DNA of 64,000 bases from assembly GCA_934725855.1 (NCBI GenBank), contig CAKVCL010000011.1, positions 35,429 through 99,428 on the forward strand. The letters run 5' to 3'. Position 1 is the stretch's first letter, and the number at the start of each line of letters is the position of its first letter. Below, piece after piece: positions 540 to 60,276 of this stretch. The position numbers and the translations under genes are program-made. The notes under the pieces are model-generated. The model saw only the letters and a list, made by a program, of their open reading frames with translations. It was not told the origin of the DNA and searched no databases. The DNA comes from an uncultured Cellulosilyticum sp. (GTDB taxonomy: Bacteria > Bacillota > Clostridia > Lachnospirales > Cellulosilyticaceae).

Positions 540-610
540 GCGGGTGTAGTTCAATGGTAGAACTTCAGCCTTCCAAGCTGACTACGTGGGTTCGATTCCC
601 ATCACCCGCT
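540..610 (+). tRNA. tRNA-Gly(TCC), copy 1
   Basis: Cloverleaf with acceptor GCGGGTG/CACCCGC, anticodon loop CTTCCAA (anticodon TCC) and T-loop TTCGATT. The CCA end is not encoded. It is identical to the copy at 1095-1165. Confidence 0.95.
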
Positions 611-614
611 CTGT

Positions 615-691
<77 letters not shown>

Positions 692-696
692 TTTAT

Positions 697-771
697 GGTG
701 GGTGTAGCTCAGTTGGTAGTAGCACTGGATTGTGGTTCCAGGTGTCGTGGGTTCGAGTCCCATCTCCCACC
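697..771 (+). tRNA. tRNA-His(GTG)
   Basis: The anticodon loop TTGTGGT in stem CTGGA/TCCAG gives GTG. The extra 5' G (697) opposite C at the discriminator (771) is the histidine identity element. The acceptor contains a U6-U67 mismatch, and the D-stem has a further non-canonical pair in GGTAGTAGC. The identity is clear and the fold is slightly irregular. Confidence 0.9.
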
Positions 772-809
772 TTTTGTTATGTCTTAAAAGATATAACTAT
801 ATATCATAT

Positions 810-881
810 AGGGTTATCGCCAAGCGGTAAGGCACAGGATTTTGATTCCTGCATACGGAGGTTCGAATCCTCCTAGCCCTG
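810..881 (+). tRNA. tRNA-Gln(TTG), copy 1
   Basis: Acceptor AGGGTTA/TAGCCCT, anticodon loop TTTTGAT (TTG), discriminator G, CCA not encoded. It differs from the copy at 1253-1324 by one base in the variable region. Confidence 0.93.
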
Positions 882-885
882 GTAT

Positions 886-958
886 GGGTCACTAGCTCAG
901 TCGGTAGAGCACTTGACTTTTAATCAAGTTGTCCCGGGTTCGATTCCCGGGTGGCTCA
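886..958 (+). tRNA. tRNA-Lys(TTT)
   Basis: Acceptor GGGTCAC/GTGGCTC with G-U pairs, anticodon loop CTTTTAA (TTT), discriminator A, no encoded CCA. Confidence 0.93.
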
Positions 959-989
959 GTTCTTAGCAAATCGCTAAGGTGATGAATAT

Positions 990-1071
990 GCGGGCGTGGC
1001 GGAATTGGCAGACGCACTAGACTTAGGATCTAGCGCCGCGAGGTGTAAGGGTTCGACTCCCTTCGCCCGCA
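990..1071 (+). tRNA. tRNA-Leu(TAG)
   Basis: Class II tRNA with a long variable arm. Acceptor GCGGGCG/CGCCCGC, anticodon loop CTTAGGA (TAG, reading CUA/CUG), discriminator A. Confidence 0.93.
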
Positions 1072-1094
1072 TACTTAAATTTCATAAACACCAT

Positions 1095-1165
1095 GCGGGT
1101 GTAGTTCAATGGTAGAACTTCAGCCTTCCAAGCTGACTACGTGGGTTCGATTCCCATCACCCGCT
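1095..1165 (+). tRNA. tRNA-Gly(TCC), copy 2
   Basis: Identical over its whole length to the copy at 540-610, anticodon TCC. It starts the duplicated Gly-Arg-Gln part of the operon. Confidence 0.95.
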
Positions 1166-1172
1166 TTTATAT

Positions 1173-1249
<77 letters not shown>

Positions 1250-1252
1250 TAT

Positions 1253-1324
1253 AGGGTTATCGCCAAGCGGTAAGGCACAGGATTTTGATTCCTGCATGCG
1301 GAGGTTCGAATCCTCCTAGCCCTG
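1253..1324 (+). tRNA. tRNA-Gln(TTG), copy 2
   Basis: Same as 810-881 except one A-to-G change in the variable region. Last tRNA of the operon, followed at once by the terminator. Confidence 0.93.
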
Positions 1325-1332
1325 TATTAGTT

Positions 1333-16725: not shown

Positions 16726-16932
16726 AGAGCAGGGTAAAGTATTGAGCGTTAAGTTCTATTGTTACGGAATGTTGAACATAGCCGAAGATTACAATAACAA
16801 CGCTTAAAAAGTGGTGATTAAGTAATCGCGATTCAATACTTGCATTCACTGCAATATTATTATCGCCAAAATGGAAATAATAAAATTGTTCTGAAGAACC
16901 AGCTCCTTATAAAATTTTAAGGAGGTTTTTTT
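16726..16932 (+). promoter_or_regulatory. THF (folate) riboswitch with expression platform
   Basis: The TATAAT box at 16714-16719 places the RNA start near 16726. The core fits the THF-I class. AGTATTGAGCGTTAAG resembles the P2/J region with the conserved CGTTAAG. GGAATGTTG and CCGAAG occupy the P3 loop and junction. ATTCAATACTTGCATTC closes P2 and supplies the conserved TTGCATC-like strand (to about 16852). Downstream, CTCCTTA (16903-16909) pairs with TAAGGAG (16918-16924), followed by seven T up to the folT start codon. The same arm is the Shine-Dalgarno sequence. Tetrahydrofolate should therefore switch off folT-folC. Confidence 0.85.
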
Positions 16933-22711: not shown

Positions 22712-22944
22712 TATGAAACATCAATGATGAGAAGGAGTATAATCCTAAATTTCAGAGAGTGAGCCATGGCTGAAAGCTTACATCAGGATTAGAAGACATC
22801 TCGGAGAGCGCTCTTGAAATTGTATTAGGGAGCAACGGTTAGTCTCGTTATAGACTACTTAGAGTGCAAAGTAAGAAAATTACTTTGAAACAGGGTGGCA
22901 ACACGGTGATATCGTCCCTGACAGATTAGTCAGGGGCGTTTTTT
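22712..22944 (+). promoter_or_regulatory. T-box riboswitch, aspartate type
   Basis: Stem I features AGAGAGTGAGCC and GGCTGAAAG are present. The likely specifier codon is GAC (Asp) at 22795-22797, followed by A. The T-box AGGGTGGCAACACGG lies at 22892-22906. The terminator CGTCCCTGAC/GTCAGGGGCG with six T is at 22913-22944. TGGC in the T-box would pair with a tRNA ending GCCA. That fits tRNA-Asp (discriminator G) and not tRNA-His, whose discriminator in this genome is C (771). Uncharged tRNA-Asp should therefore permit read-through into hisS-aspS. Confidence 0.9.
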
Positions 22945-59645: not shown

Positions 59646-59673
59646 TTTACTTTATATAGAATCTTGGTATAAT
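59646..59673 (+). promoter_or_regulatory. Promoter of the antisense RNA
   Basis: -35 TTTACT (59646-59651), 16-bp spacer and TATAAT (59668-59673) with TGG directly before it (extended -10). The RNA start should be near 59680. Confidence 0.65.
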
Positions 59674-59679
59674 AAAAAC

Positions 59680-59816
59680 AAAAAAATGCTTAGTGAAAGC
59701 AGACACTAAGCATTTAATGAGATATTTTTTACGGTTTGGGCTATTGAATAAAGCATCGAATCATAAAATCAATGAAAAGCACAACTACTCTTGGTCGGAT
59801 GGTGTGCTTTTTTCTT
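59680..59816 (+). ncRNA. Candidate antitoxin-like antisense RNA
   Basis: A transcript of about 136 nt is implied by the promoter at 59646-59673 and a terminator at 59775-59818. No ribosome binding site with a sensible frame is present. Its first bases would form the 12-bp stem at 59684-59715. It overlaps the last ten codons of the small membrane gene on the opposite strand and the whole predicted 3' UTR of its mRNA. This matches the RatA/SR4 layout of known Firmicutes type I loci. Confidence 0.55.
59684..59715 (-). terminator. Terminator of the small membrane gene
   Basis: AAATGCTTAGTG (59684-59695) / CACTAAGCATTT (59704-59715), 12-bp stem. On the minus strand it is followed by seven T, then G and more T (from 59683 down). 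On the plus strand the tail is poor. Confidence 0.75.
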
Positions 59817-59818
59817 TT
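59775..59818 (+). terminator. Terminator of the antisense RNA
   Basis: AAAAGCACA (59775-59783) / TGTGCTTTT (59803-59811), 19-nt loop, followed by T6, C and T4. Confidence 0.75.
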
Positions 59819-59952
59819 GCATAAATATCAAGTTCAAGGCTCTTTAGACTGATTTTAAGTTTAATTTTTGTGAAATAAACACGGTGTATGTAGGTTTCAC
59901 GAACGACAATAACGATCACTAAACCGATAATCAGCATCACGTAGAGCATCAT
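59785..59952 (-). CDS. Small membrane peptide, candidate type I toxin
   Basis: 55 codons from the ATG at 59952. A second ATG follows at once. AAGGGGGTGG lies 6 bases upstream. The product starts with a hydrophobic helix MMLYVMLIIGLVIVIVV, then a basic middle (KIKLKISLKS region) and a polar tail. This composition fits pore-forming toxins of type I systems, although the tail is longer than in TxpA or Fst and I know no exact match. Codons such as CTC, GTC and CTG are unusually frequent compared with neighbours. Expression is suggested by an extended -10 promoter and a perfect terminator. Confidence 0.6.
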   Translation of the reverse strand: MMLYVMLIIGLVIVIVVRETYIHRVYFTKIKLKISLKSLELDIYAKEKSTPSDQE

Positions 59953-59958
59953 TCAATA

Positions 59959-60000
59959 CCACCCCCTTTAGCTAAAGAATGATCAATAGCCTAGGAGGGT
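59959..60000 (-). promoter_or_regulatory. Leader element that may hide the ribosome binding site
   Basis: ACCCTC in the leader (plus strand 59995-60000 as GAGGGT) can pair with GGGGGT in the Shine-Dalgarno sequence (59961-59966). Between them lies the 12-base palindrome CTTTAGCTAAAG (59966-59977). Confidence 0.4.
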
Positions 60001-60016
60001 AAAATATCTAAAACCC

Positions 60017-60033
60017 CCGCACCATCCTTGCGG
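60017..60033 (-). repeat. Leader hairpin CCGCA/TGCGG
   Basis: Stem CCGCA / TGCGG with a 7-nt loop near the predicted 5' end of the minus-strand mRNA, followed by GGG and a T-rich stretch. Confidence 0.5.
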
Positions 60034-60050
60034 TCGTTATTTACTCTTGT

Positions 60051-60059
60051 AGTATAGCA
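60051..60059 (-). promoter_or_regulatory. Extended -10 promoter of the small membrane gene
   Basis: TGC-TATACT on the minus strand (60059 to 60051). It would start an mRNA near 60044 with a 90-nt leader. The -35 is weak. Confidence 0.5.
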
Positions 60060-60276
60060 TAATTAAAAAGGTAATAATAGGAATATTAAGTAAATAAAGA
60101 AGGAAAAATGGAAATAAATATTAAGGGGTTTTAGAATTTGTATACATATATAGAAGTCAACATTCTTTAGGTAATGCTAAAAGGCTTTCTACACCTTCCA
60201 CTACCAAAAAATAATATTTTAGCCTATATAACGTTGTGAGTTTTGAATAGGGAGCTTACAAATATTATTATTGCAT
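60060..60276. other. AT-rich gap before the uxaC terminator
   Basis: No open frame, repeat or RNA motif was recognised here. It lies between the small membrane gene promoter and the uxaC terminator. Confidence 0.4.

What the first reader, a model, noticed from the sequence alone, without database searches (positions are those of the whole stretch)
59646..60064. Candidate type I toxin-antitoxin locus with convergent antisense RNA
A 55-codon membrane peptide (59952 to 59785, minus) has a ribosome binding site, an extended -10 promoter (60051-60059), a sequestering leader and a 12-bp terminator with a long U-tail (59684-59715). A second transcription unit on the plus strand has its own promoter (59646-59673, TTTACT-16-TATAAT) and terminator (59775-59818). 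It would make an RNA of about 136 nt, complementary to the last 31 nt of the coding region and to the whole 3' UTR. Known families with this geometry are TxpA/RatA and BsrG/SR4 in Bacillus. The hydrophobic start plus basic middle fits a membrane toxin. The 38-residue tail after the membrane helix and the sequence itself do not match any toxin I know, so this may be a new family.
Basis: partly seen in the sequence, partly recalled or inferred. Interest (0 to 1): 0.8.

Follow-up and report, generated by a model that had tools for sequence, protein, structure and literature searches.

The report
New Clostridia toxin with antisense-RNA antidote
A tiny membrane-peptide gene and a small RNA predicted from the opposite strand across its end look like a self-poison and its antidote, and sequence relatives indicate that the same RNA control parts recur in many Clostridia, sometimes around quite different peptides.

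Summary
In detail: the 55-codon ORF (59952-59785, minus), its promoter, leader and terminator, and a convergent plus-strand unit (59646-59815) are present. Relatives turn a plausible guess into a well-supported prediction. The peptide belongs to a family without a significant Pfam, NCBIfam, PHROG or PADLOC match (129 and 415 protein clusters in two profile searches; Cellulosilyticum, Zhenhengia, Epulopiscium-type bacteria, Clostridium). In the 17 loci having both ends (window included) the antisense -10 is TATAAT, with a -35 16 nt away. The antisense terminator lies in the toxin's last codons; its arms change together, so amino acids of the toxin tail covary (C with S; G or D with R). The leader has a covarying 5' hairpin and a box complementary to the 3' UTR. 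Several broken copies keep the antisense half; one (L102) keeps only the toxin half. Two copies lie in a provirus setting. The same leader precedes unrelated hydrophobic peptides.

Best reading: a type I toxin-antitoxin module, working like bsrG/SR4, of an unnamed family. Toxicity and both transcripts are unproven. The 'sequestering leader' is more complex than first read. No sequence link to TxpA/BsrG was found; the C. difficile toxins were not compared directly.

The parts
59785..59952 (-). toxin-like ORF, 55 aa: N-terminal membrane helix, then predicted beta-hairpin, then short charged tail
   Evidence: AF2 helix 2-22, strands 25-34 and 39-47, mean pLDDT 76, pTM 0.45
60051..60059 (-). toxin promoter, extended -10 TGCTATACT
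   Evidence: -10 block conserved in alignment A5
60017..60033 (-). H1, hairpin at mRNA 5' end (CCGCA/TGCGG)
   Evidence: 5-6 bp in 17 of 17 loci, covaries; swap test of 13 representatives 0/10000, within-clade 10/20000
60014..60018 (-). GGNGG element, 5' arm of H2, overlaps the last two bases of H1
   Evidence: middle base covaries with CCNCC
59994..59998 (-). CCNCC element: pairs with GGNGG (H2) or alternatively with the SD
59983..59991 (-). L-box GGCUAUUGA, complementary to the 3' box
59959..59969 (-). Shine-Dalgarno AAAGGGGGUGG
   Evidence: conserved GGNGGTG core
59949..59958 (-). T-box UAUUGAAUGA (spacer and start codon), also complementary to the 3' box
59739..59747 (-). 3' box UCAAUAGCC in the 3' UTR
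59684..59715 (-). toxin mRNA terminator
59646..59673 (+). antisense promoter TTTACT-16-TATAAT
59680..59816 (+). predicted antisense RNA (antitoxin), about 137 nt
   Evidence: inferred from promoter and terminator; its longest ORFs differ between loci
59775..59815 (+). antisense terminator, inside the toxin's last codons
   Evidence: arms covary between 13 representatives, 0/20000 overall and within clade

Best explanation
A chromosomal type I toxin-antitoxin module. The minus strand makes an mRNA for a 55-residue membrane peptide that is presumably toxic to its own cell. The primary mRNA is predicted to be poorly translatable: the SD is paired, and the 3' box pairs back to the leader or the start region. 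The plus strand makes a ~137-nt antisense RNA that begins in the toxin's terminator and ends inside its last codons. Pairing over the 3' UTR would give an RNase III substrate and, in many members, tighten SD occlusion, as SR4 does on bsrG. Supported by sequence comparison: ORF, antisense promoter, both terminators, H1, H2 and, less tightly, the long-range pairing. Inferred: both transcripts, the duplex, RNase III, toxicity.
For: Antisense -10 TATAAT in the 17 loci having both ends, spacer 16. Antisense terminator arms covary (13 representatives, 0/20000, also within clade). 50 distinct toxin tails show C (30) or Y (1) with S, and G, D or S (19) with R (0/10000). H1 covaries. L-box and 3' box change together, e.g. 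GGGCTATTGG/CCAATAGCCC, GGACTATGGAA/TTTCATAGTCC, CGGCTATGGATT/AATTTATAGCCG (35 leaders, 0/20000); T-box:3' box 1/10000. Folding: SD unpaired 0.06 on average over 17 entries, T-box:3' box above 6 bp in 14 of 17; 7.2 bp against 2.1 with a shuffled 3' box in 11 members. In 24 family genomes the 3'-half model has 18 hits, 10 beside a leader and 8 without. Tandem or multiple copies per genome. Lysis genes beside two provirus copies. Two paralogue pairs differ mainly in the antisense overlap: 25 of 137 columns against 4 of 233; 14 of 236 against 5 of 257.
Against: No expression data and no toxicity test. L102 (protein identical to P0064 of Defluviitalea raffinosedens) has leader, SD and ORF but no 3' box or antisense promoter. 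Within the two clades of the first 13 representatives L:3' box is not significant (2401/20000) and T:3' box is weak (752/20000); within 17 Clostridium-sample leaders L:3' box gives 276/20000. L137 shows neither long-range pairing in its ensemble, and in L082 and L137 T:3' box is below the shuffled mean. Blocking the antisense target opens the start region (0.20 to 0.44 unpaired on average); in the window itself CCNCC:SD pairing does not rise (0.85 to 0.80). A third paralogue pair, L081/L083, differs everywhere (75 of 280 columns before the overlap, 56 of 173 in it). The two closest pairs show no excess of synonymous change (2 against 6; 0 against 7). In the window the locus lies between an SDR gene and uxaC, with no phage gene directly beside it.
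Confidence: 0.85

Rival explanations
1. A useful small membrane protein (stress, transporter helper, prophage lysis accessory) whose dose is tuned by a cis-antisense RNA; not a toxin.
For: L129 and L130 are followed by holin-like and endolysin-type genes, and L082's neighbour matches the same phage family of unknown function as those holin-like genes; nothing here measures toxicity.
Against: Several copies have lost the toxin's start yet keep the antisense half (L113, L134-L136, L141, L162, L170), with one clear reverse case (L102). Multiple copies, patchy occurrence (0 of 80 uxaC loci from other genomes carry the peptide; positive control 80 of 80), and the same leader before unrelated hydrophobic peptides fit a toxin module better.
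Confidence: 0.1
2. A member of the TxpA/BsrG (Hol_Tox) or C. difficile CD0956.2 toxin families that has diverged beyond detection.
For: Same convergent 3'-overlap geometry and size class (PMC6562991, PMC6563280, passages seen). One 25-aa peptide behind the same leader in G012 scores weakly with Pfam Hol_Tox (E 0.0063, 16.8 bits, cut-off 23.3).
Against: No family at a curated cut-off for the window peptide and six relatives; weak hits only, such as LapA_dom E 0.0057 for L081 and a PHROG holin E 0.05 for L084. No tblastn match in 50,697 phage records for four family members.
Confidence: 0.12
3. A structured mRNA leader and a chance promoter and hairpin on the other strand; no antisense RNA.
For: Promoter-like hits are common in this AT-rich sequence (22 found, 11.8 expected).
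Against: The promoter is conserved in the 17 loci and the terminator arms covary.
Confidence: 0.03

Closest known systems
bsrG/SR4 (Bacillus subtilis, SPbeta prophage)
   Same: Convergent genes overlapping at 3' ends; small membrane toxin; RBS kept in a few GC pairs; antisense binding at the 3' end changes folding at the SD (PMC6562991, passages seen). Here mean CCNCC:SD pairing rises from 0.59 to 0.80 over 17 entries when the antisense target is blocked, though not in the window's own mRNA.
   Different: No sequence similarity found; here a leader/3' UTR long-range pairing, a covarying 5' hairpin, and an antisense terminator that shapes the toxin's tail.
txpA/RatA (B. subtilis skin element)
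   Same: 3'-end base-pairing of toxin mRNA and antisense (PMC6562991, passages seen); small membrane toxin; mobile-element setting for part of the family here.
   Different: No sequence match; RatA is reported to act through RNase III without refolding the mRNA (PMC6562991).
C. difficile CD2517.1-RCd8, CD2907.1-RCd9, CD0956.2-RCd10
   Same: Convergent, 50-53 aa, hydrophobic N-terminus and charged C-terminus, prophage links (PMC6563280, PMC7699646, passages seen).
   Different: No homology detected: none of four family queries matched a phage record; whether that collection holds C. difficile phages was not checked, and C. difficile toxin sequences were not compared directly.
aapA/IsoA (Helicobacter pylori) and hok/Sok
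   Same: Untranslatable primary transcript through SD occlusion, in some with a 5'-3' long-distance interaction (PMC6733600, passages seen).
   Different: Different toxin and (recalled) different antisense position; 3' processing as an activator was not looked for here.

Membership tests
Type I toxin-antitoxin (as a kind) | small ORF with membrane helix, SD and start | tested here: met
   (prediction)
Type I toxin-antitoxin (as a kind) | antisense RNA gene overlapping the toxin mRNA, with own promoter and terminator | tested here: met
   by sequence and conservation only
Type I toxin-antitoxin (as a kind) | antitoxin is RNA, no conserved ORF in it | tested here: met
   longest ORF 43 codons in the window, 8-39 in the other entries; sequences vary, though clade 2 shares a short GTG/TTG-started stretch over the 3' box and terminator
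Type I toxin-antitoxin (as a kind) | poorly translatable primary toxin mRNA | tested here: inconclusive
   folding prediction agrees; not measured
Type I toxin-antitoxin (as a kind) | peptide is toxic and the RNA relieves it | not testable with these tools
   needs expression
TxpA/BsrG (Pfam Hol_Tox PF16935; assignment recalled) | profile match of the toxin | tested here: not met
   0 Pfam families for the window peptide
C. difficile CD0956.2-type toxins | sequence homology of the toxin | tested here: inconclusive
   no phage-record match; toxin letters not available to compare
Known Rfam RNA | match at gathering score | tested here: not met
   none at the locus; seven below-threshold hits; among six relatives searched one hit, a cobalamin riboswitch elsewhere in L138

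The most novel reading that the evidence does not exclude
Clostridia share one RNA control chassis: 5' hairpin H1, GGNGG/CCNCC, L-box, SD ... 3' box, terminator, usually with an antisense promoter of fixed layout. It carries interchangeable, even unrelated, toxins: 55-62 aa helix-plus-hairpin peptides in some genomes and 25-34 aa hydrophobic peptides in another. The RNA, not the toxin, defines the family, and the opposite-strand terminator dictates part of the toxin's amino-acid sequence. (Odds lowered from 0.55 on recount: only five of ten leader hits in the genome with short peptides were parsed.)
Probability: 0.5. Interest if true: 0.8.

Novelty: new variant of a known kind. Interest (0 to 1): 0.7.

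Why it matters
Type I modules are hard to find because their toxins are short and often unannotated. Here the regulatory RNA is conserved well enough to search with: the leader model hits 12 of 24 genomes of the window's family (E up to 0.01) and 29 of 68 of a genus that is Clostridium by protein identity (E up to 1e-5). That gives a handle on a hidden class of toxin-antitoxin candidates in Clostridia. The covariation gives base-level predictions for how a 3' antisense could control translation initiation at a distance, and it is a clear case of an opposite-strand RNA hairpin constraining a protein tail.

Tried and rejected
Upstream ORF in the leader (mok-like): ATG after GGGGGTT in many relatives but absent in the window, so not conserved (by eye). 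Protein antitoxin encoded in the antisense RNA: no long conserved ORF (the first version used a faulty pattern). SD occlusion by CCNCC as its only role: loci with GGUGG/CCACC keep the leader pairing. Local L-box pairing just before the SD: 120/10000 overall, 1024/20000 within clades, left open. Fold search of the model: 0 matches at E up to 0.001, best 2.5. Phage and plasmid collections: no match. Viral contigs: two contigs of one genome, none for three other queries.

Selection and counting. The 17-locus set excludes L102, which lacks the 3' half; with it the promoter is present in 17 of 18. In the scripts the L103 entry is the same copy as L114, so 16 distinct loci were scanned; L103's own copy is, and the L103/L114 lines are void. 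Near-identical members (L083, L086, L114, L130) were dropped before the swap tests. The 35 leaders came through model R2, which scores the GGNGG/CCNCC pair, and a script that demands H1 complementarity: 18 of 62 loci offered did not fit and were left out, among them L173 and L177, family members with a wobble in H1. So H1 and H2 rest mainly. Two T-G pairs come from taking the last CCNCC. The promoter scan was permissive: 26 of 35, of which 22 TATAAT; nine had none (L180, L191, L194, L197, L198, L201, L207, L211, L234). Tail covariation: 50 distinct tails fit the pattern, 68 did not (mostly the other tail type), of 120 listed proteins. Permutations treat related sequences as independent. The terminator arms were chosen by best stem, so one search is the one cited.

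Matches judged chance and not used: L085, L087, L092-L095, L105-L110 (internal stops, unrelated long frames or low scores; of these only L085, L087 and L109 were looked at as sequence), L149 and L150 (chance 15-mers). L088 keeps an ORF but has neither leader nor 3' half. L124, L139 and L142 have lost both ends.

Full report
What is there. On the minus strand a 55-codon ORF (59952-59785) is preceded by an extended -10 (60059-60051), a ~90-nt leader and a strong SD, and followed by a 12-bp terminator (59715-59684). On the plus strand a promoter TTTACT-16-TATAAT (59646-59673) faces it, and a hairpin with a U-rich tail (59775-59815) lies in the ORF's last codons. The gene sits between a short-chain dehydrogenase gene and uxaC. 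The uxaC protein is 83-85% identical to three Cellulosilyticum MAGs, so the host is a relative of that genus. No whole genome is held for the window.

A family. Two near-identical proteins were found at first. An alignment of relatives then gave 129 clusters at E up to 1, and a second alignment 415 at E up to 0.01; 120 were listed each time, and the listed names are hypothetical or uncharacterized proteins from Cellulosilyticum, Zhenhengia, Niameybacter, Epulopiscium and Epulonipiscioides, Defluviitalea, Clostridium, Paraclostridium, Romboutsia, Haloimpatiens. Pfam, NCBIfam, PHROGs and PADLOC give no match at a curated cut-off or significant E-value for the members tried. In genome samples the protein profiles matched 9 of 24 genomes of the G003 family, 15 of 392 of the order at a loose cut-off with several chance hits, 6 of 391 of the class and 3 of 8 of the Defluviitalea-type family.

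The antisense unit is conserved. In the 17 loci with leader, ORF and 3' box (window included) the antisense -10 is TATAAT, with best spacer 16 and a GTTTA -35 exact in 15. The two arms of its terminator differ between loci but stay complementary: GCACA/TGTGC, AGACACT/AGTGTCT, AGAACTGTC/GACAGTTCT, AGAGTGTTC/GAACACTCT, AGAACGG/CCGTTCT. Exchanging arms among 13 representatives lowers the stem score from 19.1 to 12.3 (14.4 within clades); 0 of 20000 permutations reach the observed value in either test. In the clade with longer tails both arms are coding, so the toxin's tail covaries: of 50 distinct tails, 30 have NC with DS, one NY with DS, and 19 have G, D or S with R. In the window's clade the second arm runs over or past the stop codon. 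The longest ORFs in the antisense RNA are short and differ between loci, so the antitoxin is most likely the RNA.

The mRNA looks built to stay silent. H1, a 5-6 bp hairpin at the 5' end, occurs in the 17 loci with several stem sequences and covaries. GGNGG just after it pairs with CCNCC: G-U, A-U, G-C and U-A versions are seen in loci found without the RNA model, and 35 of 35 leaders of the larger set are canonical (selection caveat below). CCNCC can instead pair with the SD. The L-box is complementary to a 3' box on the far side of the ORF, and both change together (0/10000, 0/20000), but not significantly within the two clades of the first set (2401/20000) and modestly within the Clostridium sample (276/20000, 17 leaders). 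A T-box around the start codon is complementary to the same 3' box (1/10000; within clades 752/20000). In ensembles the SD is unpaired with probability 0.06 on average over 17 entries (highest 0.40 in L091 and 0.32 in L082), and the T-box pairs with the 3' box by more than 6 bp in 14 of 17; L082 and L091 use the L-box instead and L137 neither. In 11 members shuffling the 3' box drops T-box pairing from 7.2 to 2.1 bp on average (not in L082 and L137), and shuffling the leader raises SD opening from 0.05 to 0.23. SD occlusion is described as a hallmark of type I toxin mRNAs, with 5'-3' contact in some, in PMC6733600 (passages seen).

How the antisense could act. SR4 binds the 3' end of bsrG mRNA, lengthens the SD-closing stem and starts RNase III decay (PMC6562991, passages seen). 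Here, blocking the antisense target in the fold raises mean CCNCC:SD pairing from 0.59 to 0.80 and lowers SD opening from 0.06 to 0.02, but opens the start-codon region from 0.20 to 0.44; in the window CCNCC:SD goes from 0.85 to 0.80. So the SR4-like effect is predicted for some members and not for the window itself, where decay of the duplex would have to do most of the work. This step is inference.

Signs of a toxin. In 24 family genomes the 3'-half model R1 has 18 hits, 10 beside a leader and 8 without. By sequence, four of the eight (L104/L159, L113/L168, L162, L170) keep the antisense terminator region, 3' box (changed in L162 and L170) and promoter region with the toxin's start lost; the other four are more decayed. 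The leader model R2 has 33 hits there: 10 beside an R1 hit and 23 not, of which 19 belong to other peptides (next but one paragraph), one (G011:C50) lies at a contig end and three are weak and unparsed. So in these genomes no window-type leader on a complete stretch lacks its antisense half; elsewhere L102 does. L134-L136 and L141 are further toxin-start losses with the antisense promoter kept.

In two paralogue pairs the leader and most of the toxin are near identical while the antisense overlap differs (L129/L130; L103/L114), as expected if each antitoxin must know its own mRNA; a third, older pair (L081/L083) differs throughout. L129 (100% identical to a Zhenhengia yiwuensis protein) lies after baseplate, tail and tail-fibre genes and before a holin-like gene and an amidase; L130, from the same genome record, precedes a holin-like gene and a lysozyme. 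None of 80 uxaC loci from other genomes carries the peptide, with the control found in 80 of 80, so this copy is not a fixed neighbour of uxaC.

A wider chassis. R2, built from 12 members, also hits four tandem places in each of two genomes (G014, G015); in each, three of the four have an intact 62-aa ORF of another sequence, and the fourth is masked or truncated. A third genome (G012) has ten hits; five were parsed, before hydrophobic ORFs of 25-34 aa, four of them ending in K, KK or KKL. A fourth case is a 56-58-aa ORF in G011:C65 (L197). L-box and 3' box still match with other letters in several of these (GGACTGTGGAA/TTTCATGGTCC; CGGCTATGGATT/AATTTATAGCCG; GGACTATGGAA/TTTCATAGTCC). In G012 a TTTAAA-16-TATACT stands where the antisense promoter is expected (by eye); the permissive scan found a promoter in 26 of 35 leaders, 22 with TATAAT. 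One short peptide has a sub-threshold Hol_Tox match. R2 matches 12 of 344 order genomes and 29 of 68 of the genus of G652 at E up to 1e-5; that genus is Clostridium judging by identity of its protein with P0136 (C. chauvoei). The model scores the H2 pair and the parsing script demands H1, so for these extra copies the L-box:3' box result is the one free of that selection.

Known or new. Searches of the open-access library for type I toxin-antitoxin with Lachnospiraceae, Cellulosilyticum, Epulopiscium, TxpA with Clostridium, long-range interaction, T1TAdb, novel family, BsrG/SR4 and the C. difficile names showed no description of this family in their listings or in the passages read. Subscription papers and T1TAdb itself could not be searched, so the claim is limited to that.

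Noticed in passing
window 22715-22922 and 16728-16853: T-box leader and tetrahydrofolate riboswitch at gathering score; ordinary.
   Followed up: no
window 540-1325: Cluster of nine tRNA genes with Gly, Arg and Gln genes each present twice.
   Followed up: no
L202 (G014:C80) and L203 (G015:C1): Four leader copies per genome with a 62-aa peptide (three of four ORFs intact in each); printed leaders identical, 3' ends differ; their antisense arrangement was not worked out.
   Followed up: partly
L204, L206, L194, L198, L201 (G012): Ten leader hits in one genome, five parsed, before 25-34 aa hydrophobic ORFs; possible large set of type I modules.
   Followed up: partly
L102 (G101): Toxin-like ORF with full leader but no 3' box or antisense promoter; tail replaced after RPP.
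   Followed up: partly
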